From IMG/VR virus record IMGVR_UViG_3300045131_002298, positions 38,742 through 102,741 of that record: DNA of 64,000 bases; one strand, given 5' to 3'. This DNA comes from a virus. Below are positions 18,192 through 60,908 of the stretch, piece by piece. The position numbers were made by a program, and so were the translations under genes. A model generated the notes under the pieces. That model did not search any database, was not told where the DNA came from, and saw only the letters and a list, made by a program, of their open reading frames with translations. Position 1 is the stretch's first letter; every line of letters starts with the position of its first letter.

Positions 18192-18743
18192 ATGATAACA
18201 GAAGACACGCAACTAATAATAGGTTTGGACCTTTCGCTTACTTCTACTGGAGTTAGCGTATATTCTATTTCAGAGGATACTATAGTCACTGAGAGTATAA
18301 AAACTTCTAATAAGAATTCCTATATGCAGAGATATAGAATTATACTTGATAGAATAACTGAGATAGATCATTTTATAGTCCCGGGCGCAATCTACTTTAT
18401 AGAGGGATATTCATTTGGTTCCTTCGGAAAGTCCAGTTCAATGTCTAATTTAATAGAATTAGGAGGAATAATCAAATATGATCTAACTAACAGGGAAAGG
18501 TTTTATATTGATGTTCCTCCTACTGTATTAAAAAAGTTTGTTACAGGAAAGGGCAATGCTAAAAAGGAGGACATTAAATTAGCTCTTTATAAAAAATATC
18601 ATAAGGAATTTAAGAATTCTGATGAGGCTGACGCTTATGCCCTAACCATGTTTGGGCTTAAGTATTTAGCTTTAGCCTCTAACTTTAATAATAACACCAC
18701 TGCGGCGGAAAAAGAATGTATCCTAAAGGTAAGAGGCATGTAA
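18192..18743 (+). CDS. RuvC-like Holliday junction resolvase
   Basis: A 183-residue RNase H-fold nuclease. The first catalytic acid is in IIGLDLSLTSTGVSV (about residues 9-23), a second in YFIEGYSFGSFGKSS, and the last in NSDEADAYALTMF. This order is typical of RuvC-family resolvases used by phages to cut recombination junctions before packaging. Because GLDLS must be near the N-terminus, the ATG at 18192 is firm even though no ribosome-binding site precedes it. Its stop overlaps the start of the AAA+ gene (TAATG). Confidence 0.85.
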   Translation: MITEDTQLIIGLDLSLTSTGVSVYSISEDTIVTESIKTSNKNSYMQRYRIILDRITEIDHFIVPGAIYFIEGYSFGSFGKSSSMSNLIELGGIIKYDLTNRERFYIDVPPTVLKKFVTGKGNAKKEDIKLALYKKYHKEFKNSDEADAYALTMFGLKYLALASNFNNNTTAAEKECILKVRGM

Positions 18744-21466: not shown

Positions 21467-21524
21467 GTTTTTTATTATAAGGCTACACCTATACAAAAGT
21501 CAATAAAAATCTTTCACAAAATGC

Positions 21525-23185: not shown

Positions 23186-23489
23186 GCCGGATTATAAATA
23201 TAAGCATATTAAAACACAGAATCCGGAAGATTGGTTAAAACAAGTAGATACTGATGGAGAATTAGTATATTGTAAAAAAAGATCAGCACGTATGCATACT
23301 CGTTTCTGCGATATTCTAAGAAAGGCAATACCTATTGCTCCTGAAAGTGGCTATATAGATAAAGGGCTAAAAGCTGTAAATATTTGTAATGACTGTGAAG
23401 TTACGCGAAATAAATTATCTGTAAGGCGTTTCATAGAATATCAGACTCAGATTAAAAAAGATGAAAAAACTAACGGAGACAATATATAA
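23169..23489 (+). CDS. Small cysteine-containing hypothetical protein
   Basis: A 106-residue basic protein. Cysteines in YCKKRSARMHTRFCDIL and ICNDCEV suggest one zinc site. AAGGA lies upstream of the ATG. It overlaps the ParB-like gene by one base (TAATG), which points to coupled translation. Its function is unknown. Confidence 0.6.
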   Translation: MAKTPKPDYKYKHIKTQNPEDWLKQVDTDGELVYCKKRSARMHTRFCDILRKAIPIAPESGYIDKGLKAVNICNDCEVTRNKLSVRRFIEYQTQIKKDEKTNGDNI

Positions 23490-28000: not shown

Positions 28001-28406
28001 CATGTTTTATTTATGCGATCTTTTGAATATGAAGATAGTTACTATGGATACCTACCAAAACGTATCTTTTATCCAGGGACTCAGGAAACTTAAAGTAAGA
28101 AGTGGTCCACTTTCTACAGTTACTACTCCTGTTCCTTATATGGAAGCAAAAAGTGCTTATATAGAAGGAAGACTAATGCATCCTAAGAATGAAGTATATA
28201 TAGACGAGTTGCTTCATTTAGAATATGATCCAAAAAAACAAAAGGTGGACCATATTCCCAATAGGCATAATGACACCTGTGATGCTGTAGTGGGAGTGAT
28301 ACATATACTTACACATAAGGTTGCTTCTTACAAAAGAAGCAGAAGAGACGCTAAGGTTACTGACAAGGTGCCTGCACATAGGCAAATAGTTATTAACAAA
28401 CTTTAA
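25083..28406 (+). CDS. terL: Terminase large subunit interrupted by an intein
   Basis: A packaging motor and nuclease of 1107 residues before splicing and about 670 after. Walker A is TGATGWGKS (about 130-138). The intein is residues 241-677; its removal joins DVYAG to CMSELNYFS, placing it in the Walker B/catalytic glutamate region. The nuclease part follows with HVDLGVSKDRVGLAIGH, TMDTYQNVSF and NRHNDTCDAVVG, giving the acidic residues of an RNase H-type terminase nuclease. No ribosome-binding site is obvious before ATG 25083. Inteins in terminase active sites are known in phages; the unusual part here is the overlapping endonuclease gene. Confidence 0.88.
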   Translation: MALENLQVIPLNTAFELVFDVLRENKLSTRDESMLEALVLACPQISDGADAYILKDDLNNFCRNFIQALKENDGSFLYKEKGYKGRLVDIEEFLESKEYMDQKGSVRPVVKYELQNIIERLDNTREVVLTGATGWGKSYLSRALIEYMLYKLSMLHNPQYQYGLAPGSSIVMILQSLSLRLSKKILFDPLLSAFSASPYFTKNFSFNKHVTSELQFPKNIYILPVSGSEMATLGLDVYAGCFLPEQEYVTTEGAFDSLISDVENKNPKIFESNALVQGNKTITQFTGWKPIIKLTFDNGETLICTPDQYLLGEGQEYVKAGEAEGKRILFSNMSTMRKEGHISNYTFKASSQHDFLNLPGTVSGLLLARETYIASAQNRIQNNMSTMWARVWDDFLYSLVKETQYDPTRISREIRSSEIRRSYNEDKRVGEKEYTETEKKFSRLCCKVNDRNRETFTPCPRSNSVKILRSQRETETWRQSFKKMGGIGFRGKEQASCTGKKTITYKSHRKSQIHVYSQKRRYNISTFSFRNSRCSMVRSARCSVGIRKCSVSYGNRRRISRIHPRFYFAFFSYRSKIRLERYAYKTMASYTRYLFSFSHTGYLEGNEKDRNAEILQLYKQKQNKSSKLSGDSSLFNSKRCIRVENLNVIMPVYDLHNVGGSHFFIARTENGFIPVKNCMSELNYFSVVENSKQLTMRGQEDTTYDQASNAYTNLIQRLKSRFQTYGKIPGCLILDSAVHYPGDFLSKKIEEAKWDNQIYVVKHAIWDTLSQDRFSGKRFIVEIGTLDRSSRIIESKKFALPEADLLEVPEEYRSDFERDIETALRDFAGLATGHRRAFMPFKESVTDAYTVYEAYYNGHTLFKEESIVVNDYFVGPWEWDLLIDKEYMKQIAFDKNASFCMHVDLGVSKDRVGLAIGHIQEYKSLPSTSFYSKERNDFTEVLDMDAPVICIDGIIQIRPPQGGEVDFDMLRGFMFYLCDLLNMKIVTMDTYQNVSFIQGLRKLKVRSGPLSTVTTPVPYMEAKSAYIEGRLMHPKNEVYIDELLHLEYDPKKQKVDHIPNRHNDTCDAVVGVIHILTHKVASYKRSRRDAKVTDKVPAHRQIVINKL
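25803..27113 (+). other. Intein in the terminase, 437 residues
   Basis: The first residue is Cys241 (CFLPEQEYVTTEG). Block B is seen as ICTPDQYLLG, in place of the usual TPxH. The end is PVYDLHNVGGSHFFIARTENG then VPVKN-type KN before Cys678. The splicing parts are only about 90 N-terminal and 35 C-terminal residues. The about 305 residues between them look like translated non-coding frame, because the real protein in that stretch is an endonuclease in another frame (26032-27021). The frame nevertheless has no stop. Splicing would therefore need to tolerate the long linker. The absence of a His before the terminal Asn is noted. Confidence 0.85.
26032..27021 (+). CDS. Zinc-finger PD-(D/E)XK homing endonuclease nested in the terminase intein, other frame
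   Basis: A 329-residue protein read in the +1 frame relative to terminase. It has two C2H2-like fingers (CQLCGRKVIYLTTHLKQVH and CQLCGQEFGMISSTHLLKKH) of the MucR/Ros kind, a basic middle, and a nuclease domain RSRFEIAVAVWLDLL, then YTPDFILPFSLIEVKSVW, with the E, D and ExK of Vsr-like/PD-(D/E)XK enzymes. The ATG has GGGCAGG upstream, and the stop lies exactly where the intein's C-terminal splicing segment begins. Such enzymes could cut intein-free terminase alleles and drive homing. Expression would be by internal initiation. Confidence 0.8.
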   Translation: MLKPEKQRENESYFLTCQLCGRKVIYLTTHLKQVHNMTSSTYLELFPGSYLHGKPISHRRKTEYKITCQLCGQEFGMISSTHLLKKHNMTPLEYREKYGPLKSEEAIMKTKEWAKKNIQKQKKNSPDFVAKSMIGIEKRLHLAHEATRLKFSDPKERQKHGDKALKRWEELALEEKNKRAAQGRKQLLINHIENPKYMYTRRRGDIISPRSRFEIAVAVWLDLLDVPWEYESVVFPMEIEGEFHVYTPDFILPFSLIEVKSVWKDMHTKQWPLIQDIFSPLVIQATSKEMKKIGMQKFYNYINRNKINQVNFQEIAPYLTLNAVYGWKI

Positions 28407-33793: not shown

Positions 33794-34090
33794 ATGGATT
33801 TTGTAGAATGTAATTCTTGGTATAGTCCTGTAACTCAGAAGCATGAAATAAGCTTACGATTTGCTACCTGTGTAGAAGAGTTAGAGGGCATATATGAAAA
33901 ATTACCACATGATAGCTTAAGTTCTCTTGAGTTCAAAAATATAGTAGGCTTAGCTTTAAGTAAAGAACCTATAGAAAAAATACAAACTAAATATGAATTA
34001 GAGCAAAGCGTAGCTAAAGGCTACGCTGTTCCTTCTTTTTTAACTGAAGAAGGAACTAGAAAAATTGTTATTGAAAAGGAAACTGACTGA
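33794..34090 (+). CDS. Hypothetical protein
   Basis: A 98-residue acidic protein immediately after the HNH gene. It has a helical centre (SSLEFKNIVGLALSKEPIEKIQTKY) and a basic/acidic C-terminus. No family was recognised. Its stop overlaps the next ATG (TGATG). Confidence 0.55.
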   Translation: MDFVECNSWYSPVTQKHEISLRFATCVEELEGIYEKLPHDSLSSLEFKNIVGLALSKEPIEKIQTKYELEQSVAKGYAVPSFLTEEGTRKIVIEKETD

Positions 34091-49752: not shown

Positions 49753-50283
49753 ATGTCGCTAGATTATTATAGTGCGATTTTTCATATAGTAGCATCACTT
49801 CTTATTATAGGTAGTATATCTATAGCACATAGAATATTTATTATTAAGACTTTTATTAAGCACTACTGTAAGTATGATCTACGTAGTGCTTTTCCGGAAG
49901 CGGCCCCTATACCTCAAGAGGGTCCTATACCAGTAGTTAGAACTATAGATTTTACTTGGGAGCCTTCTTTGTGGTTTAAAAATTACGATGAACGTGCTGC
50001 CATTATTACTGGCGCAGCTATTGCCGCTTATAAGAAATACGATAATTATTATAATTTATTTGAGGGAAGAATATTATTAGATCTGTCGATTAAAGCTGTT
50101 AAGAAAAGCTGTTTTGAGCATGGCTTTGGGATATGTATGAATTATGTTACTCCTAGATGGGGCGGAGAAATTTCTATAACTATAGTGGATAAACCTGTGG
50201 AAAAACCTATAGAAAAGCCGGTACAGAAGCTTACAGAAGAAGTGCCAAGAATAAGGCAGATAATGGTGTGTAAAAATGTATAA
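49753..50283 (+). CDS. Membrane-anchored hypothetical protein with C-terminal RQIMVCK tag
   Basis: A 176-residue protein with an N-terminal hydrophobic helix (AIFHIVASLLIIGSISIAHRIFII), a soluble domain and a linker of repeated KPVEKP-type units. It ends in RIRQIMVCKNV. The end motif R-x-[IL]-[VIM]-[VI]-C-[KR] is shared with seven other genes nearby. Its last codons contain the ATG of the next gene. Confidence 0.6.
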   Translation: MSLDYYSAIFHIVASLLIIGSISIAHRIFIIKTFIKHYCKYDLRSAFPEAAPIPQEGPIPVVRTIDFTWEPSLWFKNYDERAAIITGAAIAAYKKYDNYYNLFEGRILLDLSIKAVKKSCFEHGFGICMNYVTPRWGGEISITIVDKPVEKPIEKPVQKLTEEVPRIRQIMVCKNV

Positions 50284-50749
50284 ACTTTACTATGAGTTAG
50301 ATAAGCCTGAAGTTTTAAATTTAACTCGTATTAAATATAGCAGATACATGGACACAATACAATGTAATCACGGCTCTAGTAGCTGGAGAGAGCCAGCAGG
50401 TTACAGATGGAGTGATCTGGAACTAGAGGGAGTCTGTGATGAACTAAGCGCAGTATTTTTTAATAGATTAATCTATTCCCCCATGGATATGATTCCTCTT
50501 TTCTATATTAAAGAGGAAGAGGCAAATTCTTATCTAAAGGTGATGCAGAGTAGCATTATTAAGTGGAATTTTACAGATAGTGAATACAGACCTAGTGAAA
50601 ATTTCTCCTTAACGTTGTCTATAAGAGATATAGAGCGTTTGATTTTTGGCGCAGTAGATAAATCTAAGAAAGAAAAACCTAAGAGGAAGCTTAAACAAAA
50701 AAAGGTAATCATTCCAGAAAGGCAGATAGTCATATGTCGTATGCCTTAA
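50276..50749 (+). CDS. Hypothetical protein with C-terminal RQIVICR tag
   Basis: A 157-residue protein overlapping the previous gene by 8 nt. The domain is followed by a basic linker (KKEKPKRKLKQKKVIIP) and the shared tag ERQIVICRMP. Its tag region contains the ATG of the next gene. Unknown function. Confidence 0.6.
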   Translation: MYKLYYELDKPEVLNLTRIKYSRYMDTIQCNHGSSSWREPAGYRWSDLELEGVCDELSAVFFNRLIYSPMDMIPLFYIKEEEANSYLKVMQSSIIKWNFTDSEYRPSENFSLTLSIRDIERLIFGAVDKSKKEKPKRKLKQKKVIIPERQIVICRMP

Positions 50750-51273
50750 GATGGGCTATAAACGGTCCTAATGTGTTTGATGTAAATAGTATTTATATAA
50801 ATACATTTAGGGATGGTTCTTTTAATAATTTAGAGCAGGTGTATCACCGCGCTTGTGCTGATATAATTTCTTCCGCTGCCTCAACTAGAATACAACTAAA
50901 AAGGTGTAAAAATTTTTTCAATGAAAGCACTATTGAAAATTTACGCTCTTATATGCATATTCCTTTTCCTCCTTTTTATATCGTAGAAGAGGGGAATAGA
51001 TCAGCTATAGGTGTAAGTACAAATAGTTGCGCTTCTCATTCAACTAGATTAGTAAAATTTAATTATTCCTTCTTGTCTTCTTTAACATGGGATATGGAGA
51101 TAGTGACATCCGGAGTAATAGAATATCTTAATCAGCCTAATATAAAATTAGATTATATAGAGTTTTCTCTGGGTGTGGTAGAAAAACCTAAGAAAAGTAA
51201 ATATATAGAAGTTAGTTGCGGAGAAAGAAGCATAATTGTATCAAGGAGGAAGAATGGAGCCAAGCGGGTATAG
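50734..51273 (+). CDS. Hypothetical protein with a variant of the C-terminal tag
   Basis: A 179-residue protein overlapping the previous gene by 16 nt. It shows GERSIIVSRR, the shared motif with Ser for Cys, then nine more residues. It is in tandem with two other tagged genes and similar to them in plan (domain, lysine-rich linker, tag), so the three may be distant paralogues. Confidence 0.55.
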   Translation: MSYALRWAINGPNVFDVNSIYINTFRDGSFNNLEQVYHRACADIISSAASTRIQLKRCKNFFNESTIENLRSYMHIPFPPFYIVEEGNRSAIGVSTNSCASHSTRLVKFNYSFLSSLTWDMEIVTSGVIEYLNQPNIKLDYIEFSLGVVEKPKKSKYIEVSCGERSIIVSRRKNGAKRV

Positions 51274-51484
51274 CACAGCGTTTATAATAGGATTTGGTTT
51301 AGGGCTAGTATTATCCATGGTTGTGCTCGGAGTAATGTCAGAAAAGACATGGGTGTGGCACGATGGTTTCTATGCTGCGTATACTATGCAGATGGAAGGA
51401 AAGCTTGAAGAACTTGCGCCCTCTTCTATAAAAAAGCGCTTCGAGATAGATCAGGTCGTAAAAAAATTTGAGGACAAAAAATAA
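51254..51484 (+). CDS. Small membrane protein
   Basis: 76 residues from ATG 51254 with AAGGAGG in front. N-terminal transmembrane segment (AFIIGFGLGLVLSMVVLGVM), then a charged helical part. It overlaps the preceding gene by 20 nt. The TnpB element begins 6 nt after its stop. Confidence 0.6.
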   Translation: MEPSGYSTAFIIGFGLGLVLSMVVLGVMSEKTWVWHDGFYAAYTMQMEGKLEELAPSSIKKRFEIDQVVKKFEDKK

Positions 51485-51494
51485 AGCTTGGTGA

Positions 51495-52634
51495 TTACTC
51501 CCCAGTGGCTTTCAGCCAAGGGGCTTCTACGGGTTTGAGACCGACAGCTTGTAATCCCAAGCTGAGTATGTTCAATGCAGCGTTTTCGTCTCGATCGAGC
51601 GATAGCTCGCAACAAGGGCATTTGTAATGACGGTTCGACAACTTAAGTTTCTGCCGATAACCGCATCTGGAGCAGGTTTGACTGGTGTAAGCGGGACATA
51701 CTCGAACGAAAGTTCTACCGGCGCATTCTGCCTTGTAGGCCAACATGTTCGAGAAGCTATTCCAAGCCGCATCTGCTATGCTTTTGTTAAGACAAGTAAA
51801 ATTGTCCTGCTGCATATTGTTGATATTCAAATCTTCCACGGCTATGCCGCCGAATTCTTTGACAATTTTATGAGAAAGTTTATGAGCAAAGTCTTTACGT
51901 TTGTTTGCTATGCGCTCATGAACACGAGCCACCGCTTTGCGTTTTCGTTTATGTTCTCTTGTACCCTTTTCTCGTTTAGATAAACGTCTATTAACTTTAG
52001 CAAGGGCCTTCTCTTCCGACTTAAAGAATCTTGGATTCGCTACGTGCGTTCCATCAGACAGAGTTACAAAAGAAATAACTCCGGCATCTATGCCAACGAA
52101 GTTATCCAGAGGGGGCAGCGTGTTCTTCTCAATCTCACACGAAAAGGAAACAAACCATTTGCCTGTAGGGGTTTTCTTAACCGTGCAAGTTTTAATTTTT
52201 CCTTCGGTAGGTCGATGAATCACAGCGCGTACTTTGCCAATCTTGGAGAGGCTTATGCTTGCTTCGCCTACTTTAAATCCACTTTGTGGGTATGTAAACG
52301 AAGTATAACGCCCACGCCCGTGAAACCTGGGGTATCCTGGCTTCTCGCCGCGTTTCACACGACGAAAGAAAGACAAGTAAGCAAGCTCAATACGCCTTGC
52401 AATGTCTTGCAATACTTGAGAATGCACTGCATTCAAATCTGGTACGCGCTGCTTCAATACCTTGAACGTGTTCATTTAATCGTAAATAGAAAGTCCTTTT
52501 TTTTCAAGTTCCCAGCTCTGCTTGCGCATCTCAAGCAAATGATTGTACATAAGCCTGCACTGCTCAAGCGTGTTCTCAAGCAACGTGAGTTGCTTCTTAG
52601 TGGGATAAATTCGATATTGAAAGGTCTTTCTCAT
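51495..52634 (-). pseudogene. tnpB: tnpB with a nonsense mutation near codon 53
   Basis: The ancestral start is ATG 52634 (MRKTFQYRIYPTKKQ, as in copy 1). The frame meets TAA at 52476-52478, at the codon that is CAG (Gln) in copy 1; a CAA-to-TAA change would explain it. The same frame is open afterwards to 51495. An ATG immediately follows the stop (TAAATG), so reinitiation could make a 326-residue product that keeps all RuvC motifs (GIDAG, VEDLNI, SLDRDEN) and the zinc ribbon but lacks the N-terminal part. Probably inactive as a nuclease, possibly still able to bind the guide RNA. Confidence 0.85.
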
Positions 52635-52691
52635 GTTTTACAGTATACTGCTACGCTACTTTAAAGTCAAGAAGAATCTCTCACAAAACGC

Positions 52692-52720
52692 TTGACAAAG
52701 GAGAAAACTTATGCTACATT
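52692..52720 (+). promoter_or_regulatory. Outward promoter in the TnpB element end, copy 2
   Basis: TTGACA at 52692-52697, 17-bp spacer, TACATT at 52715-52720. It corresponds to the promoter at 21525 of copy 1. Confidence 0.65.
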
Positions 52721-52739
52721 TAGAAAATAAAAAAAAAGC

Positions 52740-52768
52740 TTGACAAAGTTTAAAATCTGTGGTATATA
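52740..52768 (+). promoter_or_regulatory. Sigma70-type promoter
   Basis: TTGACA at 52740-52745, 17-bp spacer, TATATA at 52763-52768, extended TGTGG. It belongs to the common promoter family of this phage and drives the operon from 52800. Confidence 0.85.
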
Positions 52769-52799
52769 CATATAAAATCTTGAAAAGAAAGGAAATAAA

Positions 52800-53096
52800 A
52801 TGTCTCGGGCTGTAGTAACTCCAAAATGTGAGGTTTGTAAAACAGAGCGCGCAACTATATTCGCGCCTGATTGCGGGGGATATCCCTCTGTGGGAGTCCT
52901 TAATGACTGGAAATTCTTATGTAAGAAATGTAATACTCAGGAATATTTTATATTTATTAGTGATTACTATCAAAACCAAAGACAAACATCAGACTGGGTA
53001 CAGCATCTTAGTGATAAGAATTGGTTTGATATTATAGACTTTGGAGATATGCTTATGCGATATCAACATGAGATGGAGTCAGCTCGTGGAATTTAA
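52800..53096 (+). CDS. Small zinc-binding hypothetical protein
   Basis: A 98-residue protein with AAAGGAA before the ATG. CEVCKTERA and FLCKKCNTQ form a four-cysteine zinc site. The end FDIIDFGDMLMRY resembles a segment of the gene at 46648. Unknown function. Confidence 0.6.
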   Translation: MSRAVVTPKCEVCKTERATIFAPDCGGYPSVGVLNDWKFLCKKCNTQEYFIFISDYYQNQRQTSDWVQHLSDKNWFDIIDFGDMLMRYQHEMESARGI

Positions 53097-53307
53097 AGAA
53101 TTTGCTAATGAGTGGATGAAACAGTTTTTTATGGAACCTGCTTCTGCAGAAAACTGTGAGAAGATGAGTAAACTAGTATATGCTTATCTTTGGGCCCATC
53201 CCGAATTCTCTAAGCATAGGGAAGATATAGAGTTTTTCTGGAATAAGGTGGGTGAGGCTTGGGATAGTATAAGCGAATCCTACCATACGGACCCCAAACC
53301 ATTATGA
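53086..53307 (+). CDS. Small hypothetical protein
   Basis: 73 residues if started at GTG 53086, which has GGAG at the right distance. The frame is open from 53041, but that start would overlap the previous gene by 56 nt. Helical (EFANEWMKQFFMEPAS). It overlaps the next ATG by 4 nt. Confidence 0.5.
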   Translation: MEFKEFANEWMKQFFMEPASAENCEKMSKLVYAYLWAHPEFSKHREDIEFFWNKVGEAWDSISESYHTDPKPL

Positions 53308-53528
53308 AAGATATACCAACCGAGGCTTTAGATAGAAGTTGGCTTTCAGAAGTGTTGGACTGTTTAGAAGACGAAGCTGAGTATATGGAATATGTTCAAT
53401 ACGAAGAAGAATATGCAAATGGAATGCTCTATGTAATAGATGTATTGAGGGAATGGTATGATAGAAAAACATTCGTGGAAGTCGATTTTTCTAGAAGAAA
53501 TGCAGAATTTCGACGAGACGTGGAATGA
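53304..53528 (+). CDS. Small acidic hypothetical protein
   Basis: A 74-residue, very acidic helical protein (CLEDEAEYMEYVQYEEEYANG). Small acidic phage proteins can mimic DNA, for instance as anti-restriction factors, but nothing specific shows that. It overlaps the next gene by 71 nt. Confidence 0.5.
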   Translation: MKDIPTEALDRSWLSEVLDCLEDEAEYMEYVQYEEEYANGMLYVIDVLREWYDRKTFVEVDFSRRNAEFRRDVE

Positions 53529-53754
53529 TGTAATCTCTTGTACCGCTACTCGAGAAGAGATAGACAGGGAAGTTACACGTAATGAAGAACATGATCGTAT
53601 TTATCTAAGCAAAGAGCTAACGCCAGAATCAATATATGCGACTACTTCTACTCGCTTGTATTTTGTAGTGGATTTTGAAAGTTTTAGATATATTGCGTCT
53701 CTTCCTATAAACTTTAAAGAAGGCGATAAAGCCGAAGATTTATATGTAGGTTAA
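53458..53754 (+). CDS. Small hypothetical protein
   Basis: A 98-residue protein with GAGGG 7 nt before ATG 53458. A later ATG at 53500 would shorten the overlap with the previous gene but has a weaker ribosome-binding site. Unknown function. Confidence 0.5.
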   Translation: MIEKHSWKSIFLEEMQNFDETWNDVISCTATREEIDREVTRNEEHDRIYLSKELTPESIYATTSTRLYFVVDFESFRYIASLPINFKEGDKAEDLYVG

Positions 53755-53755
53755 A

Positions 53756-53968
53756 ATGTGTCTTACAGAACTATTTTATTTTTTCTGGGATTCTCTTTGT
53801 GATCCTAATAAAGTATTCGCGTGGCTTATTATAATTCCTATAAGCACTTGTCTTGGTATTGCATTATGCAACACAATGGAGAAATATTTTGGGTTTGCTA
53901 CTACTGGGGTAATATATCTTATAATAGTTATCACTATGTTTGCTACTGGTATCATAAGGTGGTGTTAG
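53756..53968 (+). CDS. Small membrane protein
   Basis: A 70-residue protein with two transmembrane segments (VFAWLIIIPISTCLGIALC and GVIYLIIVITMFATGIIRW). Unknown function. Confidence 0.6.
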   Translation: MCLTELFYFFWDSLCDPNKVFAWLIIIPISTCLGIALCNTMEKYFGFATTGVIYLIIVITMFATGIIRWC

Positions 53969-53969
53969 T

Positions 53970-54380
53970 ATGATTGGTAAAAAAGTTCCAACTAAAGATA
54001 ACACTTTCAGGCTTGAAATTTCCCGGGCAGAAATAGAGGAACAACAAAGTAAGTCTTCTCCGGGAACAAACTTCTGGGCAGATTGGGTGAATTCTGCGGG
54101 TAGTAATACAGATAAGGAATGGGAAGCGCTATCTGAAGAAGAGAAAGCTGACTACCAAAAGAAACACTATATCACAGAGCAGTACTACTATTACAAAAAT
54201 GAAAAGGGAGAAACTGTTCCGTATATGCGATGGACGCTAAACACAGATTGGACCTGGGATATATGGGACATGGAAAAAGGTATAGAATACCGCCGCTGCT
54301 ACCCCGCTTCTATGAAGAATGAAGATATCATTGAAGAAGTACTAATAGACTATTCTTTTACTAAGAAGGAGAAAGAATGA
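53970..54380 (+). CDS. Hypothetical protein
   Basis: A 136-residue soluble protein rich in W and Y (NTDWTWDIWDMEKG). No family was recognised. It overlaps the next ATG by 4 nt. Confidence 0.55.
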   Translation: MIGKKVPTKDNTFRLEISRAEIEEQQSKSSPGTNFWADWVNSAGSNTDKEWEALSEEEKADYQKKHYITEQYYYYKNEKGETVPYMRWTLNTDWTWDIWDMEKGIEYRRCYPASMKNEDIIEEVLIDYSFTKKEKE

Positions 54381-54679
54381 CACAGGAAGAAATTACTAAA
54401 AATATTATTGATACGTTAAAGGCTGCAGAGGCCTTAGAGCCAGAGCACCAAAAAGTAGTTGAAAAAATACTTGAACTAATGACAAAGAGTTTTACCTTGA
54501 TAGTAGATGAGAAGAAAATTGACGAGGCTGTAGAAACATGTATGCTCCCCTTACTTGCTATGGTCTGCTTTGATTTTCTTCAGAACTATGTAGTAAAAAA
54601 CTTACCACACGAAGAAGCTTTAAAGATGCTCACTACATCTATTTTTTCATCAATGGGGAAGAAAAACCATGAAGATTAA
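54377..54679 (+). CDS. Hypothetical helical protein
   Basis: A 100-residue helical protein with AAGGAG upstream. No family was recognised. It overlaps the next gene by 11 nt. Confidence 0.55.
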   Translation: MTQEEITKNIIDTLKAAEALEPEHQKVVEKILELMTKSFTLIVDEKKIDEAVETCMLPLLAMVCFDFLQNYVVKNLPHEEALKMLTTSIFSSMGKKNHED

Positions 54680-55034
54680 TGTGTGGTTTGCAATAGAGGA
54701 TTACTTTACAGGTGGAGTTGAATACAGTATGGGGGACCTTATAGAATTTGATGATACCTCTATGTCTGTTTTCTTTGAAACTTTTGGGGTAGCTCCTTTA
54801 TATACATTTGATATTACAAATAATAGAGGAAATAATGACGTCATCTTTGAAGATATTGCTCATGAGAAAGGTCTATTTCAGATTAAGTTATTCCCAGATA
54901 CAGATTATGTACATTCGATAGTTTTAGACGCAGAGCTTATTGATTTTGAGAAGACTGGAGAGAATGAACTTTCAGTAACTGTAAAACTTTGGGCAGGGGG
55001 CCTCTACAAAATATATGATGAACTCTCAGACTAA
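54669..55034 (+). CDS. Hypothetical protein
   Basis: A 121-residue, mainly beta protein. No family was recognised. Its end is overlapped by a small gene starting at 55015. Confidence 0.5.
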   Translation: MKINVWFAIEDYFTGGVEYSMGDLIEFDDTSMSVFFETFGVAPLYTFDITNNRGNNDVIFEDIAHEKGLFQIKLFPDTDYVHSIVLDAELIDFEKTGENELSVTVKLWAGGLYKIYDELSD

Positions 55035-55182
55035 AACAGTTTATAGAATTTTATCGTTACATAATGGCACCCCTGTGTATCGTGTGTATAATAAACAACA
55101 AGCACAAGACATACTTATGAAATGTAACGAGCGTTACCCTGATAAACCTTTTTGGCTAGAGGAGAAAGTCATTGAGAGTTAA
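55015..55182 (+). CDS. Small hypothetical protein, 55 residues
   Basis: ATG 55015 to TAA 55182. It reads as a compact alpha/beta peptide (TVYRILSLHNGTPVYRVYNKQQAQDILMKCNER), similar in plan to the gene at 55512 (YIIRSGDYIFRAYSSKEEAEKYRR). Overlaps at both ends fit the tight packing of this operon. It is shorter than many gene finders accept. Confidence 0.55.
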   Translation: MMNSQTKTVYRILSLHNGTPVYRVYNKQQAQDILMKCNERYPDKPFWLEEKVIES

Positions 55183-55519
55183 TTCGGCTTTTATGATGTA
55201 TTCTAATGTATTAACTGGAATAATGTCTCCTGTAGGTTATAGAGAAGAGGCCGCTCCTCCTATGGCGTGTATATTAGCTAAATTAATAAGTTACTTAGCT
55301 TATTTTTATGCCGATATAATAAGAGAAGAAAACCCTGAAACTAGAAGATTCCCTGATGATGATCCTTATACTATTGCTGAATGCTGGGCCCACGCTAAAG
55401 GATTTGAGCTTTGCCTTAAGACTCTTTTAAAATCTTTCCCTGCTAATGAGAAAATTGCAGAAAACGCTTTAGCTATATTAGATCATCTTTTTATAGAGGA
55501 AGAGGAAGAAAATGGATAA
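55172..55519 (+). CDS. Hypothetical protein
   Basis: A 115-residue helical protein from TTG 55172 with AGAGGAG in front. It contains YREEAAPPMACILAKLISYLAYFYADII. No family was recognised. Confidence 0.55.
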   Translation: MRVNSAFMMYSNVLTGIMSPVGYREEAAPPMACILAKLISYLAYFYADIIREENPETRRFPDDDPYTIAECWAHAKGFELCLKTLLKSFPANEKIAENALAILDHLFIEEEEENG

Positions 55520-55784
55520 AATCTACATTATAAGATCAGGTGATTACATTTTTCGTGCTTATTCTTCCAAAGAAGAGGCAGAGAAATATAGAAGACATAT
55601 TGAGGATAGTATGAAAGGAAGAAATAAATTTATACCTAGATCTATGCGACCTCGTCCTATAGATTTGCAATTAATTGCATTTCCTATCAGCCAAGAGGGA
55701 GATCCTCTAGATATGCGCTTAATGAGTATACATGCTGGTGCTGGAGATTCCACCCAATACCACGAACTTGGGGAAGTAAAGTGA
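55512..55784 (+). CDS. Small hypothetical protein
   Basis: A 90-residue protein with GAGGAAG upstream, overlapping the previous gene by 8 nt. Alpha/beta N-terminus followed by a basic, proline-containing part. It contains the near-copy of the 16-bp repeat (LQLIAF). Confidence 0.55.
   Translation: MDKIYIIRSGDYIFRAYSSKEEAEKYRRHIEDSMKGRNKFIPRSMRPRPIDLQLIAFPISQEGDPLDMRLMSIHAGAGDSTQYHELGEVK
55665..55680. repeat. Near-copy of the 16-bp quasi-palindrome
   Basis: TTGCAATTAATTGCAT: 14 of 16 positions agree with TTGCAATTGATTGCAA. It is inside a coding sequence and may be by chance or degenerate. Confidence 0.5.
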
Positions 55785-55975
55785 CCTTCTTAAATGCGCT
55801 TCTTATATCCTCTGTCTACGGAGGCTTGCTAGTATTTATGGTGGGTTCCACCTTAGGAGTATTGAAGGTAACTACAAAATATACAGATAATGAATATGCG
55901 CCTTTTATTACCCTTACTGCGTGGTTCACTTTCTTTTTTGCGCTCTTAATATATGCAGGAGAAAATTGTAAATGA
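55781..55975 (+). CDS. Small membrane protein
   Basis: 64 residues from GTG 55781 with two transmembrane segments (LLISSVYGGLLVFMVGSTLGVL and FITLTAWFTFFFALLIYAG). It overlaps both neighbours by 4 nt. Confidence 0.6.
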   Translation: MTFLNALLISSVYGGLLVFMVGSTLGVLKVTTKYTDNEYAPFITLTAWFTFFFALLIYAGENCK

Positions 55976-56235
55976 ACATTCCTATACCACAAGATATCCC
56001 TGGTCTCATCACATTCTGGATCTTCCTCTCATGGATCCCCCTTCTAAGGGCTGTAACTATGGGTGTATTGAAGGAGTATCCTCGTATTCTGGAAAGACGT
56101 AGCGAAGACATTCCAGAACATGTTAACAGATATATCACCAAGGGAGCCGCAATAGTAATAACTCTTGTGTTTTATGTGATAGTAACATTCGCTCTTCTTG
56201 GCCTTCGTCTTCTCATCCAAATGATTTGGTGCTAA
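55972..56235 (+). CDS. Small membrane protein
   Basis: An 87-residue protein with two hydrophobic segments (GLITFWIFLSWIPLLRAVTMG and AAIVITLVFYVIVTFALLGL). From here to about 60340 codons more often end in C than in the preceding operon. Confidence 0.6.
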   Translation: MNIPIPQDIPGLITFWIFLSWIPLLRAVTMGVLKEYPRILERRSEDIPEHVNRYITKGAAIVITLVFYVIVTFALLGLRLLIQMIWC

Positions 56236-56241
56236 TTTATT

Positions 56242-57897
56242 ATGAATCATACACACCATTCACCCACCGAATACTCGCATGAATGGAGACTCTCGGGAGT
56301 CCCGCCCCTCCTCACATTCCTGCCAACTCCCATCCTCAATCTATTCCCGCTCTTGAGCCCAGAGGGTAATTTTAAATTGCACTCTTACCTCAAGAGCCGC
56401 GGAATCTCGCAGGCTACATATACGCGCTTTGGGGTGCGCTTTAATGAATGGGATGAACTTGTCTTTCCTTACACAAGCATTTTAGGCAATACTATTGGTA
56501 TAGTGTTTAGAAATATTGACACTAAAAAGATCTCGGGCCTCAAAGTCCCTGCTCTTGTAGAAGACGACATCGAGCTCCCTAAAAAAGCTCGCATGGGCGC
56601 ATGGTTCGGCCTACACTTAATAGATATAACTCAGCCCCTTCTCATAGTAGAAGGAGAGTGTTTTCCTGGCGATGCTTCGGTCCTAACTCCTAACGGGTGG
56701 GTAGAATTATGTGATTATAAAGGAGAGGATGTTTTACAGGTAAATGATGATATGTCAGCTTCCTATGTAACGCCCTCCGCTTATATTAGAAAACCGTATA
56801 AAGGTGAAATGGTAATAAGGGAAGCTAAAGGATATTATTCTAAAACAACTCCAGAGCATCTCTTAGTAGCTACTGATTATAATGGTAATCTTTGTAAAAA
56901 ACCTGCAGGTAGTCATATACCTCAAACACATCATATTCCTCGGGCTGTTATATTAGATGGAACAGGAATAAATTTATCCGACGATCAATTACGTTTAAGT
57001 ATAGCTATAAGTGCAGATGCACATATAGCTGATAGAAAGGGTACAGGTTACCATAAGCCTAGAGAAAAAAGATATGCCACAATGGCATTTACTAAGCAGA
57101 GAAAAATTAATAGATTAATACAATTATTAGATAATCTTAATATTGTATTTTATTTAGGTAATTGGAAGAACGGGTATACTTCTATATGCTTTCCTATTCC
57201 TGATTGGGTCCCCGGCAGATTTCTTCCTCACGTTTGGATAGCTTTATCTACTCTTAGACAAAAAGAAATAATACTAGAAGAATTAGTGTTATGGGACGGA
57301 AACAGAGTTAAAGGGAGGAATCAAACTGATTATTGCTCTAAATATAAGGAAAATGTAATATTTGTTCAGACTATAGCACATACCTACGGACGTATATCCA
57401 CTTTAATGAAACAGAAAAATCAATGGGGGGAGTGGTATAAGGTTTCAATTCTTCATAATAAAAATAGTAATAGTTTTCAATGTATTCATAAGAGAGAAGA
57501 AATATTTGATGGAATAGTATATTGTGTAACTGTTCCCTCCGGTATGATTTTAGTGAAGCAGAATGATAGAATTACTGTAACGGGAAATTGTGATGCGATG
57601 TTCGCCTACCAATGTGGCTTCACTAACGTGATATCACCAGGAGGCATGGGCCCCACCAAATCTCAAATAAAGGCTATACCCAATAAGGTTATATACTTGG
57701 GATTCGATGCTGATGAAGCGGGGCTCCACGGCATGAAACAAACCACCTACAGATTAGGAAAGCAAAAAAGAGTGTGGTGGGTAAACTGGAACGTAGAGGG
57801 TAAAGGTAAAGATCCCAGCGACTTACGAACCAGAGAAGACTTTTGGACTTGCGTCGCAAAAATGAAGCCAACTCTAGAAGGATGGGTAACATGGTAG
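56242..57897 (+). CDS. TOPRIM-domain primase-like protein interrupted by an intein
   Basis: 551 residues before splicing, about 241 after. Residues 1-139 resemble the DnaG-type region before TOPRIM (FKLHSYLKSRGISQATYTRFGVRFNEWDELVFPY, MGAWFGLHLI). The intein is 140-449. Splicing restores LLIVEGE-CDAMFAYQCGFTNVIS, the first TOPRIM motif, followed by IYLGFDADEAGLHG and KDPSDL. It has no zinc-binding cysteines, unlike the primase at 11869. It may be a second primase, or a TOPRIM nuclease or regulator. Confidence 0.8.
   Translation: MNHTHHSPTEYSHEWRLSGVPPLLTFLPTPILNLFPLLSPEGNFKLHSYLKSRGISQATYTRFGVRFNEWDELVFPYTSILGNTIGIVFRNIDTKKISGLKVPALVEDDIELPKKARMGAWFGLHLIDITQPLLIVEGECFPGDASVLTPNGWVELCDYKGEDVLQVNDDMSASYVTPSAYIRKPYKGEMVIREAKGYYSKTTPEHLLVATDYNGNLCKKPAGSHIPQTHHIPRAVILDGTGINLSDDQLRLSIAISADAHIADRKGTGYHKPREKRYATMAFTKQRKINRLIQLLDNLNIVFYLGNWKNGYTSICFPIPDWVPGRFLPHVWIALSTLRQKEIILEELVLWDGNRVKGRNQTDYCSKYKENVIFVQTIAHTYGRISTLMKQKNQWGEWYKVSILHNKNSNSFQCIHKREEIFDGIVYCVTVPSGMILVKQNDRITVTGNCDAMFAYQCGFTNVISPGGMGPTKSQIKAIPNKVIYLGFDADEAGLHGMKQTTYRLGKQKRVWWVNWNVEGKGKDPSDLRTREDFWTCVAKMKPTLEGWVTW
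56659..57588 (+). other. Intein with LAGLIDADG-type endonuclease in the TOPRIM protein
   Basis: A 310-residue intein. Starts at Cys140 (CFPGDASVLTPNGWVEL), block B is KTTPEHLLVA, and the end is YCVTVPSGMILVKQND then VTGN before Cys450. The middle has LSIAISADAHI and LEELVLWDGNR, matching the two dodecapeptide (LAGLIDADG/DOD) motifs of intein endonucleases. The penultimate residue is Gly, not the common His. The intein is AT-rich and uses codons unlike the C-rich flanks, which supports a later insertion. Confidence 0.88.
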
Positions 57898-58193
57898 ATA
57901 CATACCCAAAACCTAAAGGTGTCTCAGATGAACTATGGAAGGGGGCGTTACGATTCTACCCTGATATTGTAAAACAAATATACAACATTGCTATAGCTCC
58001 CGGCTTCGCATACGAAGGTAGAACTAAATATGACGCAATCAATGAACAAATAAAAACTGTAGTGATCTTTTTTCAATACAGAGAAGTGCTATCCATCTGG
58101 CGGGATCAGCTTCTATCAACAACCCAAGTTGATCCAACCCCAGAGCTGACCCCCAGCATTATAACAAGACAAATAGTGGTGTGTAGGAGCTAG
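57891..58193 (+). CDS. Hypothetical protein with C-terminal RQIVVCR tag
   Basis: 100 residues from ATG 57891, overlapping the TOPRIM gene stop (ATGGTAG). It begins VDTYPKPKGVSDELW and is a paralogue of the next gene (YPxPxGVSxxxW at the same place). It ends TRQIVVCRS. The tag codons also contain AGGAG, the ribosome-binding site for the next gene. The frame opening at 57843 is rejected. Confidence 0.65.
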   Translation: MVDTYPKPKGVSDELWKGALRFYPDIVKQIYNIAIAPGFAYEGRTKYDAINEQIKTVVIFFQYREVLSIWRDQLLSTTQVDPTPELTPSIITRQIVVCRS

Positions 58194-58194
58194 C

Positions 58195-58500
58195 ATGTCT
58201 GACACTTTTTATCCACGACCTCCAGGTGTATCTGCTGACTCCTGGCAATACATCCGGGAAGAATATGACTTTCTCCTTGACGTCATCTACGCAATAGCTA
58301 ACAGACCAATACCCCTAGCGGAAAAGCAGGATCAAATAAAATATGCGATTGATATAAATCTAAACCGGGGCTCTCAAACCTACAACTCTTTTATGGTTTG
58401 GGTAGAACATATCCTATACAACTGCTACAACCCAGAAATTGCTTCCACTCTCCCAAAGAAGCCTCTCACAAGAAACATAGTGGTGTGCAAAAATGCTTAG
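58195..58500 (+). CDS. Hypothetical protein with C-terminal RNIVVCK tag
   Basis: A 101-residue paralogue of the gene before it: DTFYPRPPGVSADSW, then a helical part. It ends TRNIVVCKNA. The ATG of the next gene is inside its last codons. Unknown function. Confidence 0.65.
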   Translation: MSDTFYPRPPGVSADSWQYIREEYDFLLDVIYAIANRPIPLAEKQDQIKYAIDINLNRGSQTYNSFMVWVEHILYNCYNPEIASTLPKKPLTRNIVVCKNA

Positions 58501-58903
58501 AAGTAGAATCAAAATCCTAGTCAATCGCTACGACAAAAGAGCAGACCGGCTTAGACCATCGCCCAAGGATACAGCTATTGAAAAATACACACCAGCCAAA
58601 GGTGAAGTCTATGAATACAATTACGTAATTAACCAGTTGATTAACGCTCTCAACCACTCTAGTAATGACGCCTCTCTTTCTTATTTTATAGAGATAGTCC
58701 TTCATACAGAACAGCACAGGGAATCAAGTTTCCGTGGAACCGCCCGCTCTGATTACACAATCGCCCCAGAGCACGAAGGCCGGGTCTCCGCCTGCTCCAA
58801 AATAATCCAAGATCTAAAAGGAGCCCTCACCTCCTTTAACAAAACCAAAGAAGCCACTCCCCCTTTTTCTAACCTAAGAAACTTAGTGGTGTGCAAGGAG
58901 TAA
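58493..58903 (+). CDS. Hypothetical protein with C-terminal RNLVVCK tag
   Basis: A 136-residue basic, helical protein overlapping the previous gene by 8 nt. It ends SNLRNLVVCKE. The tag codons include AAGGAG, which serves the GTG start of the next gene. It does not share the N-terminal YPxPxGVS motif of the two genes before it. Confidence 0.65.
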   Translation: MLRSRIKILVNRYDKRADRLRPSPKDTAIEKYTPAKGEVYEYNYVINQLINALNHSSNDASLSYFIEIVLHTEQHRESSFRGTARSDYTIAPEHEGRVSACSKIIQDLKGALTSFNKTKEATPPFSNLRNLVVCKE

Positions 58904-58904
58904 A

Positions 58905-59096
58905 GTGAAAGATTCCACCATAAAGGCTATCCCTTATATACTTATAGCTCCCACAATAATCCTGGGAATCGCTATAACCTACACTGCTGATGCTCCTTTT
59001 GATTGGTGGGCAGGCGGGGCCCTCATGGCACTCGGCTTCGACAAAATTTTAGAGTTAGTAGCGGAAGGTCTGAAGGACAAATTTATAAAAAAATAA
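58905..59096 (+). CDS. Small membrane protein
   Basis: 63 residues from GTG 58905 with AAGGAG. Two hydrophobic segments (IPYILIAPTIILGIAITYTA and FDWWAGGALMALGFDKIL). It has no C-terminal tag. It abuts the next gene. Confidence 0.6.
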   Translation: MKDSTIKAIPYILIAPTIILGIAITYTADAPFDWWAGGALMALGFDKILELVAEGLKDKFIKK

Positions 59097-59513
59097 ATGC
59101 CAAGCAACTACTACAAAATCCTGGGCCTCTGCTGCTTTATCAAAGACGCTCTCCTAACCACCAGTGAACCCGGCCTAGAGGTAGCTATTAGAGACAGACA
59201 TCTCGAGCGTTACCTCTACCAAATAAACAACAAGGAATTCACCTATGACTACAACCTAAAACCTATAGAAGGCGCAGACCATTCTAAAGAATACGCGCGC
59301 CACCTCCTAATACAGTTTAACCGTTGCATAGACTACACATGTCTAAACATACACCAAAACTTGGAAACCCTAAACATCTGGATAGACATCAACCAGTTAG
59401 TCCTGAGCAACCCAATGTGGTGGCGCTTTGACGATAGGTCTGAGCCCGCTCTCAAAGAAATAAAACCCATCCCCAAAGTTGTGGGCACCAGAAATATAAT
59501 AATATGTAAATAG
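59097..59513 (+). CDS. Hypothetical protein with C-terminal RNIIICK tag
   Basis: A 138-residue protein whose ATG follows the previous stop directly. Mostly helical. It ends VGTRNIIICK, with nothing after the tag. Unknown function. Confidence 0.65.
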   Translation: MPSNYYKILGLCCFIKDALLTTSEPGLEVAIRDRHLERYLYQINNKEFTYDYNLKPIEGADHSKEYARHLLIQFNRCIDYTCLNIHQNLETLNIWIDINQLVLSNPMWWRFDDRSEPALKEIKPIPKVVGTRNIIICK

Positions 59514-59539
59514 AAAGCAAAGAATAGAAAGGAAACAAC

Positions 59540-59752
59540 ATGCCAACTTATGAGTATCGCTGCAAAAAATGTGGAAACGAATTTGAAAAAATCCAACGGA
59601 TAACAGAGGCTCCCATAGAACGCTGTAAAAAATGCAGGGGAGTAGTAGAGAGATTGATATCTCAGTCCACCTTTGTCCTAAAAGGTCAGGGATGGTATGC
59701 ATCCGATGACAAAAAAATTGCCTCTTCCTCCTCCAACGATGATTTAGCATGA
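59540..59752 (+). CDS. FmdB-family zinc-ribbon protein
   Basis: A 70-residue protein with the FmdB signature: MPTYEYRCKKCGNEFEKIQ, then ERCKKCRG and a GQGWYASD end. The two CxxC pairs bind zinc. The family is often called a putative regulatory protein; its role is not known. GGAAA precedes the ATG; it overlaps the next ATG by 4 nt. Confidence 0.85.
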   Translation: MPTYEYRCKKCGNEFEKIQRITEAPIERCKKCRGVVERLISQSTFVLKGQGWYASDDKKIASSSSNDDLA

Positions 59753-60342
59753 AAAAACATACTAGCACAGTATTAGGATTAACTATAATATCTATCGGAT
59801 TAATTGCTTCCTTCATAAACCTACTTAACTTATATTACTATCCTATCGGTATCCGTTTCCAGGATATTTTTAGGTATAATGTTGACATTATAGAACCTCT
59901 CTTAAAGGATATTTTTCCTCCAGAGCAAGAGCAGCAAGAACAACTAGAGGTAGAGGATCCATCTGAGATTGATATCATTCCTCCTCAGCGTGTCTACGAA
60001 GGCAGAGCCACACAGGTGGGTCCCGGAGCAGCTAGAGATGAAAGACAAAGGCATCAAGTTTCTAAAAAAGTGTCACCCAAATCAGAGGGTGTGAGCAAAG
60101 CCAAGAAAAGACCAAAACCTGTCCCCGTGGTTGAAGAGAAGAGTGAAGAGAAAGATGTGAGCACTTCTGCACCGGTAGCTTTGGCTAAACCCGCGCTTGT
60201 TTCTGAGCCAGTGGTGACTGCTTCCTTAACAACAAAGTTGATTGCGTATTTTGATATAGAGAAGATACTGAGCTGGGCGGCGAATATTATTACCATTGTC
60301 ACAGGTGTGTTAATAATCCTTCGCAGGAGAAAAGAAGACTAG
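59749..60342 (+). CDS. Membrane protein with proline-rich middle
   Basis: A 197-residue protein with a transmembrane helix at about 8-28 (VLGLTIISIGLIASFINLL), a charged, proline-rich disordered middle (about 60-150), and a second helix near the end (ILSWAANIITIVTGVLIILRRRKED). A spanin-like or envelope-spanning role is imaginable but there is no specific motif. Confidence 0.6.
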   Translation: MKKHTSTVLGLTIISIGLIASFINLLNLYYYPIGIRFQDIFRYNVDIIEPLLKDIFPPEQEQQEQLEVEDPSEIDIIPPQRVYEGRATQVGPGAARDERQRHQVSKKVSPKSEGVSKAKKRPKPVPVVEEKSEEKDVSTSAPVALAKPALVSEPVVTASLTTKLIAYFDIEKILSWAANIITIVTGVLIILRRRKED

Positions 60343-60428
60343 AAAGCTACATAAGTGTAGGAATACTTGTAGGAATATAGCAGAACACTTAATAAAATTG
60401 AGTGTTTTAGTAGAAAAGGTAAAGTAGA

Positions 60429-60908
60429 ATGTCCTTTTTAGGAATAGAACTAGATATAGATCCGGTGTTTTCTAAAGTATTATACCCTAACTCTCTTTTA
60501 GAAAAACTTCGTTCTGTTATAGTAGCTCATGATAGCTTTAAAGGTATAACTATAGATATAGGTGGGCATACTAATCTTCATAGAGAAGCCTTCTTTGGTT
60601 TTGATGAATGTTTATATGAGAATTGGGAAAGAGTTAGACTTTTGTCAGAGGGGGAAGAGATAATATGTAAAGAGTTTCCTAAGCTTTTACTGGGAGAAGC
60701 TAAGGTTAAAGATTGGTCCACCTATAGATTAAATATATTTCATCCTATTATGGAGTGGAACCCTATAGAGGGAAATGATAGGTATTTAGTATGTTATGCC
60801 CTCAAGTATGCTTATTATAAAATAAACAGAAAAAAAGTAAAAGAGGTTACTGATAATATTTCCAGTGTTGATAACTTTCACCGTCGTTCTATTGTTATAT
60901 GTAAGTAA
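60429..60908 (+). CDS. Hypothetical protein with C-terminal RRSIVICK tag
   Basis: A 159-residue protein, last of the tagged series. AAAGG lies before the ATG. It ends FHRRSIVICK. Its codon use is AT-rich again, unlike the tagged genes at 57.9-59.5 kb, so the tag is shared across genes of different composition. Unknown function. Confidence 0.6.
   Translation: MSFLGIELDIDPVFSKVLYPNSLLEKLRSVIVAHDSFKGITIDIGGHTNLHREAFFGFDECLYENWERVRLLSEGEEIICKEFPKLLLGEAKVKDWSTYRLNIFHPIMEWNPIEGNDRYLVCYALKYAYYKINRKKVKEVTDNISSVDNFHRRSIVICK

What the first reader, a model, noticed from the sequence alone, without database searches (positions are those of the whole stretch)
49753..60908. Eight different proteins share a short C-terminal tag
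Proteins ending at 50283, 50749, 58193, 58500, 58903, 59513 and 60908 end in R-x-[IL]-[VIM]-[VI]-C-[KR] within 0-3 residues of the C-terminus (RQIMVCKNV, RQIVICRMP, RQIVVCRS, RNIVVCKNA, RNLVVCKE, RNIIICK, RSIVICK); the one ending at 51273 has GERSIIVSRR. Apart from two paralogues the domains before the tag do not look alike, and they use different codon styles. Proteins elsewhere in the window lack it. A common C-terminal address suggests a shared partner: a sorting, packaging, degradation or assembly signal, with the Cys perhaps modified or metal-bound.
Basis: seen in the sequence. Interest (0 to 1): 0.82.

Follow-up and report, generated by a model that had tools for sequence, protein, structure and literature searches.

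The report
Shared C-terminal docking tail in phages
About ten otherwise unrelated proteins of this uncultured ~100-kb phage, including its DNA-packaging motor, end in the same seven-residue peptide on a flexible tail, and relatives carry their own version on the packaging motor, an AAA+ ATPase and sometimes the DNA polymerase, which suggests that they all plug into one still unidentified partner.

Summary
The motif R-x-[IL]-[VIM]-[VI]-C-[KR] occurs exactly seven times in all six frames of the window, always at the C-terminus of the listed genes; residue shuffles give 0.003 hits. It is selected as protein: codons vary, and between two related phages the tags changed 6 of 63 residues, all conservative, against 20% of the bodies. 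The large terminase subunit (TerL) ends RQIVINKL and 33794-34090 ends RKIVIEKETD, so Cys is not essential. In relatives the equivalent tail (consensus V-R-x-I-R-[IF]-x-K) follows a variable linker on TerL and on an AAA+ ATPase, on DNA polymerase in three lineages, and on orphan genes in the replication cassette. A profile trained only on TerL and AAA+ tails, each genome left out in turn, finds the tail on other proteins' C-termini 4.6-fold more often than internally (p = 5e-11), and not in related published phages. The TerL tail is predicted disordered on a confident model. Best reading: a peptide docking tail that brings replication and packaging proteins to one partner, logically like the shared sliding-clamp-binding tails of T4 gp43, gp55 and gp33. 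The partner is unknown. Virion sorting, a Cys role and a DNA by-product are disfavoured.

The parts
25083..28406 (+). Large terminase subunit (TerL), interrupted by an intein at about residues 243-677; ends VPAHRQIVINKL, tag codons about 28380-28400.
   Evidence: Homology to TerL; tail identical in G001 and in L089; tail predicted disordered.
33794..34090 (+). Orphan 98-aa protein ending TRKIVIEKETD (tag about 34058-34078).
   Evidence: PSSM trained without this genome scores it 11.5.
49753..50283 (+). Orphan 176-aa protein, Pro/Lys/Glu-rich linker, tag RQIMVCK-NV (50254-50274)
   Evidence: orthologue in G001 keeps RQIMVCR.
50276..50749 (+). Orphan 157-aa protein, Lys-rich linker, tag RQIVICR-MP (50720-50740)
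50734..51273 (+). Orphan 179-aa protein with variant RSIIVSR-RKNGAKRV (51226-51246), Cys replaced by Ser
   Evidence: orthologue RSIIISRR
57891..58193 (+). Orphan ~100-aa protein, tag RQIVVCR-S (58167-58187); paralogue of the next gene
58195..58500 (+). Orphan 101-aa protein, tag RNIVVCK-NA (58471-58491)
58493..58903 (+). Orphan 136-aa protein, tag RNLVVCK-E (58877-58897)
59097..59513 (+). Orphan 138-aa protein, tag RNIIICK at the very end (59490-59510)
60429..60908 (+). Orphan 159-aa protein, tag RSIVICK at the very end (60885-60905)
18716..20320 (+). AAA+ ATPase (phrog_8638). Relatives' orthologues end in a linker plus VR-x-[IL]-[RK] tail; here only a degenerate form, KKKTNLSLIRKD

Best explanation
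The tag is a short linear docking motif at the end of a flexible C-terminal linker. Unrelated phage proteins of replication and packaging (TerL, an AAA+ ATPase, in some lineages DNA polymerase or a ParB-like protein, and a changing set of small orphan proteins) use it to bind one common partner, so that they gather at the same place or take turns on it. The pattern R-x-[I/V]-x-[I/V/F]-x-[K/R], with alternating aliphatic residues framed by basic ones, suggests that it binds as an added beta-strand in a groove. Tag versions that differ between lineages, but agree among unrelated proteins of one phage, suggest co-evolution with a receptor. Shown: sharing, protein-level conservation, presence on TerL and AAA+, linker plus tail layout. 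Inferred: binding, beta-strand mode, a single partner, and that the VRxIRIxK tails of relatives are the same element as RxIVVCK here.
For: The strict motif occurs only at C-termini in the window (chance 0.003). G000/G001 orthologues: tag aa changes 6/63, all K/R or V/I exchanges, with 14 synonymous codon changes, against 308/1514 aa changes in the bodies. Codons differ among copies. Six TerLs at 34-56% identity align their tails as VRNIRI, VRSVKI, VRKVRM, TRKIRF, HRQIVI and ARHITL with an invariant R after an unalignable linker, and more TerLs do so. AAA+ orthologues end VRKLRK, VRHLKP, VRQLRR, VRQIRK, TRLLKI and similar. DNA polymerases of G009, G022 and G030 end LRIIKLRKAA, FRVIRLPARKAA and RRKVHVLRR...; ParB-like of G022 ends TRKTLRLKK. 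Leave-one-genome-out PSSM from TerL and AAA+ tails only: other proteins' C-termini 35/1751 against internal 73/16385, p = 5e-11; control genomes 1/283 against 12/3303. Within-genome tag similarity exceeds label shuffles, 0/2000. TerL model mean pLDDT 85, tail 648-670 below 50. Precedent: T4 gp43, gp55 and gp33 share interchangeable C-terminal clamp-binding tails (PMC2988020).
Against: No partner identified and no binding data. Within-genome coherence rests mainly on G000 and G009; without them 164/2000 shuffles match it. The tag list was picked by pattern, so R is invariant by construction. The AAA+ tail of this phage itself is degenerate. G003 and G006 show few carriers, and some orthologues of tagged proteins lack the tag. 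Gene calls in relatives are heuristic. Many relatives' tails are strongly basic, which also fits nucleic-acid binding.
Confidence: 0.52

Rival explanations
1. The tails are non-specific basic/hydrophobic C-termini that hold DNA-working proteins on nucleic acid or on the acidic inner membrane; similarity reflects composition, not a receptor.
For: Recognised carriers are DNA-transaction proteins; many relatives' tails run into K/R-rich ends (VRKVRVGVGGKRRRRR, VRKLRTEKKEKIRR).
Against: In the window phage the tag carries only about two to three charges, yet position-specific I-[VI]-[VI]-C is kept through divergence, with within-genome coherence. Random basic tails would not align to one core.
Confidence: 0.17
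2. The tag is a recognition tag for the phage AAA+ ATPase (window 18716-20320) or a host AAA+ protease, which remodels or degrades tagged proteins; the ATPase's own tail is a pseudo-substrate.
For: AAA+ enzymes often engage terminal tails (general knowledge; e.g. ClpX and MuA); the AAA+ gene is present in every tagged genome whose replication cassette was read, and in G009 a tagged gene lies next to it.
Against: The AAA+ gene also occurs in related phages without tags (Vibrio phage LV6). TerL is an unlikely turnover target and carries the tail most constantly. Lineage-specific tags are unexpected for a host protease.
Confidence: 0.13
3. The basic tails bind the acidic C-terminal tail ([SD]IDDLLG-type) of the phage SSB and of two other cassette proteins, a basic-peptide version of SSB-tail recruitment.
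For: SSB, a 262-aa cassette protein and the ParB-like protein share an acidic-hydrophobic tail in most of these genomes. Where the tag departs from VRxIRI (G000, G009, G020, G022) the SSB tail departs too (DLNDLL, NDDLPF, DLDALLL, DDDLPF). T4 TerL is known to interact with its SSB gp32 (PMC9026906).
Against: Only a handful of lineages and confounded with phylogeny; LV6 has acidic SSB tails without tags; SSB tails normally bind folded pockets. Sub-hypothesis of the best explanation.
Confidence: 0.1
4. Virion-packaging or cargo-loading signal, like encapsulin cargo peptides.
For: Linker plus short C-terminal peptide resembles cargo-loading peptides (general knowledge); orphans could be injected proteins.
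Against: TerL, AAA+ ATPase and DNA polymerase are not typical cargo; no convincing tag on structural-operon proteins.
Confidence: 0.05
5. The peptide is a by-product of a repeated DNA element or of recent duplication of gene ends.
For: Three neighbouring copies (58193, 58500, 58903) share AGAMAMWTAGTGGTGTGYA, and some tag codons overlap the next gene's start.
Against: Other copies use different codons for the same residues; synonymous sites drift in the tag; relatives keep the pattern with different DNA. A true DNA repeat in G009 (TTGCAGGNNCCTGCAA) behaves differently: both strands, any position.
Confidence: 0.03

Closest known systems
T4 sliding-clamp-binding C-terminal tails (gp43 DNA polymerase, gp55, gp33)
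   Same: Unrelated phage proteins of replication and late functions share a short, interchangeable C-terminal docking peptide, in gp55 on a probably unstructured linker (PMC2988020).
   Different: T4 tails are hydrophobic and acidic and bind gp45; here the tail is basic-aliphatic, lies on TerL and an AAA+ ATPase, and no clamp was recognised.
SSB C-terminal tail (SSB-Ct) and T7 gp2.5/gp4 acidic tails
   Same: Conserved terminal peptide at the end of a disordered linker that recruits genome-maintenance proteins (general knowledge).
   Different: Acidic, and carried mainly by the hub itself; the opposite charge from this tag. These phages have separate acidic tails on SSB and two other proteins.
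Encapsulin cargo-loading peptides
   Same: C-terminal linker plus short peptide shared by unrelated proteins (general knowledge).
   Different: Carriers here are DNA-transaction proteins, and no shell-type receptor is indicated.
Hsp70/DnaK-binding peptides
   Same: Short aliphatic core flanked by basic residues (general knowledge; papers listed, not read).
   Different: DnaK sites are degenerate and mostly internal; lineage-specific conserved C-termini on a defined protein set are not expected.

Membership tests
T4-type clamp-binding tails | Same short peptide at the extreme C-terminus of several unrelated phage proteins, DNA polymerase among them | tested here: met
   Window: TerL plus orphans; relatives: TerL, AAA+, DNA polymerase in G009, G022 and G030
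T4-type clamp-binding tails | Peptide is hydrophobic and acidic | tested here: not met
   Tag is aliphatic and basic
T4-type clamp-binding tails | Binds a sliding clamp | not testable with these tools
   No clamp recognised among the homology-conserved cassette genes; a diverged one could be missed, and no binding test is possible
T4-type clamp-binding tails | Tail joined by a flexible linker | tested here: met
   TerL model: confident to about residue 647, tail 648-670 below pLDDT 50; AAA+ linkers unalignable
Encapsulin-type cargo tag | Carriers are cargo of a shell; tag matches a shell-protein groove | not testable with these tools
   No virion data; carriers include TerL and DNA polymerase, which argues against it
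SSB-Ct tail | Acidic tail ending in a hydrophobic dipeptide | tested here: not met
   Tag is basic; the phage SSB has its own acidic tail
DNA repeat element | Conservation at DNA level regardless of reading frame | tested here: not met
   Codon variation and synonymous drift; 7-mer absent from other frames

The most novel reading that the evidence does not exclude
A whole clade of ~75-110-kb tailed phages organises replication and packaging through one dedicated C-terminal docking peptide read by a single unknown hub. New small proteins join by acquiring the tag, making it a plug-in address that also ties the packaging motor to the replisome.
Probability: 0.33. Interest if true: 0.82.

Novelty: new variant of a known kind. 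Interest (0 to 1): 0.62.

Why it matters
If right, the tag marks which unknown genes of these phages act together with the packaging motor, the AAA+ ATPase and the polymerase, and gives a bait for finding the hub. It would make the coupling of replication to DNA packaging testable in a second system besides T4, and would assign a functional context to about nine orphan genes of this genome without homology. The scan used here (shared C-terminal peptides within one genome) could be applied to any phage.

Tried and rejected
Pfam and PHROGs for all tagged proteins of the window and of relatives: no significant family for the window orphans. Viral-contig search with two orphans: nothing, or only the close relative. 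AlphaFold of orphan 50276-50749 with two sequences: useless, pLDDT 30. Cys or metal role: rejected because N, E or S replace it. DNA-element origin: rejected. In G009 an apparent second shared C-terminal motif, LQxPA, turned out to be a dispersed palindrome TTGCAGGNNCCTGCAA, so it is not counted. TerL tails ending in a P-[FI]-[IL]-x-G-like motif in another TerL group are conserved but not shared with neighbours, a useful negative control. Phylogenetic-profile search for the receptor was not decisive: DnaB, primase, SF2 helicase, RecA and exonuclease are in all tagged genomes but also in untagged ones. Literature searches for a described shared tail of this kind found none in the held library.

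Full report
WHERE IT IS. The window is bases 38742-102741 of a 102.7-kb IMG/VR phage record, called G000 here. It has a structural operon on the minus strand (protease 8268-8960, MCP 6188-7144) and a plus-strand replication cassette (DnaB, primase, SSB, SF2 helicase, RecA, exonuclease, RuvC, AAA+ ATPase, ParB-like, TerS-like, TerL). The nearest published phages by capsid protein are about 43-46% identical (Stenotrophomonas DLP_5, Vibrio, Agrobacterium). A close relative, G001, has a 100% identical MCP.

OBSERVATION. All eight quoted C-termini are correct. The strict pattern R-x-[IL]-[VIM]-[VI]-C-[KR] occurs seven times in the six-frame translation, only at the ends of those genes. Residue shuffles expect 0.003. 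If the sixth residue is free, exactly two more sense genes match: TerL (25083-28406, ending VPAHRQIVINKL) and the 98-aa gene 33794-34090 (RKIVIEKETD). None lies in the other 39 kb of the record.

SELECTION IS ON THE PROTEIN. The ten copies use AGG, AGA and CGT for Arg, ATA, ATT and TTA for Ile/Leu, and four Val codons. Between G000 and G001 the nine orthologous tags differ at 6 of 63 residues (only K/R and V/I exchanges) with 14 further synonymous codon changes, while the bodies differ at 308 of 1514 residues. Some bodies differ at more than half of their residues (50734: 80/141) with the tag kept. The linkers before the tag are Pro/Lys/Glu-rich in several carriers and vary in length (49753 has a 5-aa indel).

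THE SAME TAIL IN RELATIVES. TerLs of phages at 34-56% identity end, after an unalignable linker, in VRNIRI, VRSVKI, VRKVRM, TRKIRF, HRQIVI (this group) and ARHITL, with an invariant Arg. Further TerLs end VRKIRT, VRKVRV, LRKIRT, VRKIRV, IRKLKF, RKLRI and TRHVSI. The AAA+ ATPase (phrog_8638; window 18716-20320) ends in a linker plus VRMIKT, VRKLRK, VRHLKP, TRLLKI, VRQLRR, RRINMP, VRQIRK, VRKLRT, VRKIGT or VRKLHK in ten relatives; in this phage the form is degenerate (TNLSLIRKD), and in Vibrio phage LV6 the protein stops before it. DNA polymerase carries it in G009, G022 and G030, and a ParB-like protein in G022. Orphan carriers sit within the replication cassette: between DnaB and primase (G002, two genes; G004), between RuvC and the exonuclease (G004, G026), upstream of ParB-TerS-TerL (G002), and after TerL (G023).

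STATISTICS. A profile built from TerL and AAA+ tails alone, leaving out the genome tested, was run on all other called genes. It hit 35 of 1751 C-termini against 73 of 16385 internal windows (odds 4.6, p = 5e-11) in 18 tagged genomes, and 1 of 283 against 12 of 3303 in four control genomes. Not every one of the 35 is a true carrier: the internal rate predicts about eight by chance. Fifty-six curated tags are more alike within a genome than shuffled labels allow (0/2000), mostly because of G000 and G009; without these two the figure is 164/2000. The tags were chosen by pattern, so column counts overstate the invariance of Arg. Published TerLs examined (DLP_5, LV6, Colly_1, Blueeyedbeauty, Demosthenes, RcTiptonus, RHph_Y1_11) lack the tail. 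Another TerL group ends in a P-[FI]-[IL]-x-G-like tail that its neighbours do not share.

STRUCTURE. AlphaFold of G001 TerL with 37 homologues gives mean pLDDT 85; the last helix ends at residue 647 and residues 648-670, tag included, are below 50. The tag is therefore an appendage of the motor, not part of its fold. The model of an orphan carrier failed.

INTERPRETATION. A flexible linker ending in a short conserved peptide, on proteins that share nothing else, with versions that agree within a genome, is the signature of a linear docking motif. Alternating aliphatic residues between basic ones suit beta-strand addition to a groove. Recognised carriers are the packaging motor, an AAA+ ATPase, DNA polymerase and a ParB-like protein, so the partner probably belongs to the replication-packaging machinery. 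T4 offers the closest logic: gp43, gp55 and gp33 have highly similar, freely interchangeable C-terminal tails that bind the sliding clamp, gp55's through a probably unstructured linker (PMC2988020), and T4 TerL contacts gp55, gp32 and gp20 (PMC9026906). The charge is opposite and no clamp was recognised, so it is not filed as that family. A second, acidic shared tail ([SD]IDDLLG-type) on SSB, a 262-aa protein and the ParB-like protein of these genomes is one possible counterpart; the evidence for pairing is thin.

LIMITS. No partner, no binding data, heuristic gene calls in relatives, metagenomic contigs of unknown host. That the RxIVVCK tags here and VRxIRIxK tails elsewhere are one element rests on the TerL alignment and on the profile test.

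Noticed in passing
Relatives: SSB, 262-aa protein (window 21615-22403 family) and ParB-like (window 23489-24370 family): A second shared C-terminal tail, acidic-hydrophobic ([SD]IDDLLG-type), on three different cassette proteins; SSB of G009 and G022 ends in canonical-looking DDLPF.
   Followed up: partly
L060-L064 (G009): Dispersed palindrome TTGCAGGNNCCTGCAA, dozens of copies per ~100 kb, both strands, inside and between genes; its translation gives LQxPA at several C-termini.
   Followed up: partly
L053, L068, L083 and other loci of G002-G010: Several structural proteins of relatives end in long poly-Thr C-termini (TTTTTTTT).
   Followed up: no
L067:8282-12369, L071:4712-8093: Neighbouring tail-region proteins share a C-terminal ...EIAWR-like ending in G004 and G005.
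   Followed up: no
window 25083-28406 and 26032-27021: TerL is interrupted by an intein (about residues 243-677) with a second long ORF overlapping it in another frame; G001 lacks it and L089 has a shorter insertion.
   Followed up: partly
window 56242-57897: Primase-like (Toprim) protein carrying an apparent intein (CFPGDASVLT ... VTGNC), next to the tagged cluster 57891-59513; the G001 homologue is 241 aa.
   Followed up: no
window 20327-21496 and 51495-52475: Two TnpB-like genes on the minus strand in otherwise plus-strand regions, the second interrupting the tagged-gene neighbourhood.
   Followed up: no
viral loci L121-L174: Another group of TerLs ends in a conserved P-[FI]-[IL]-x-G-like tail (MPLPFIMG, LPPFLIGSGF) not shared with neighbouring genes.
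   Followed up: partly
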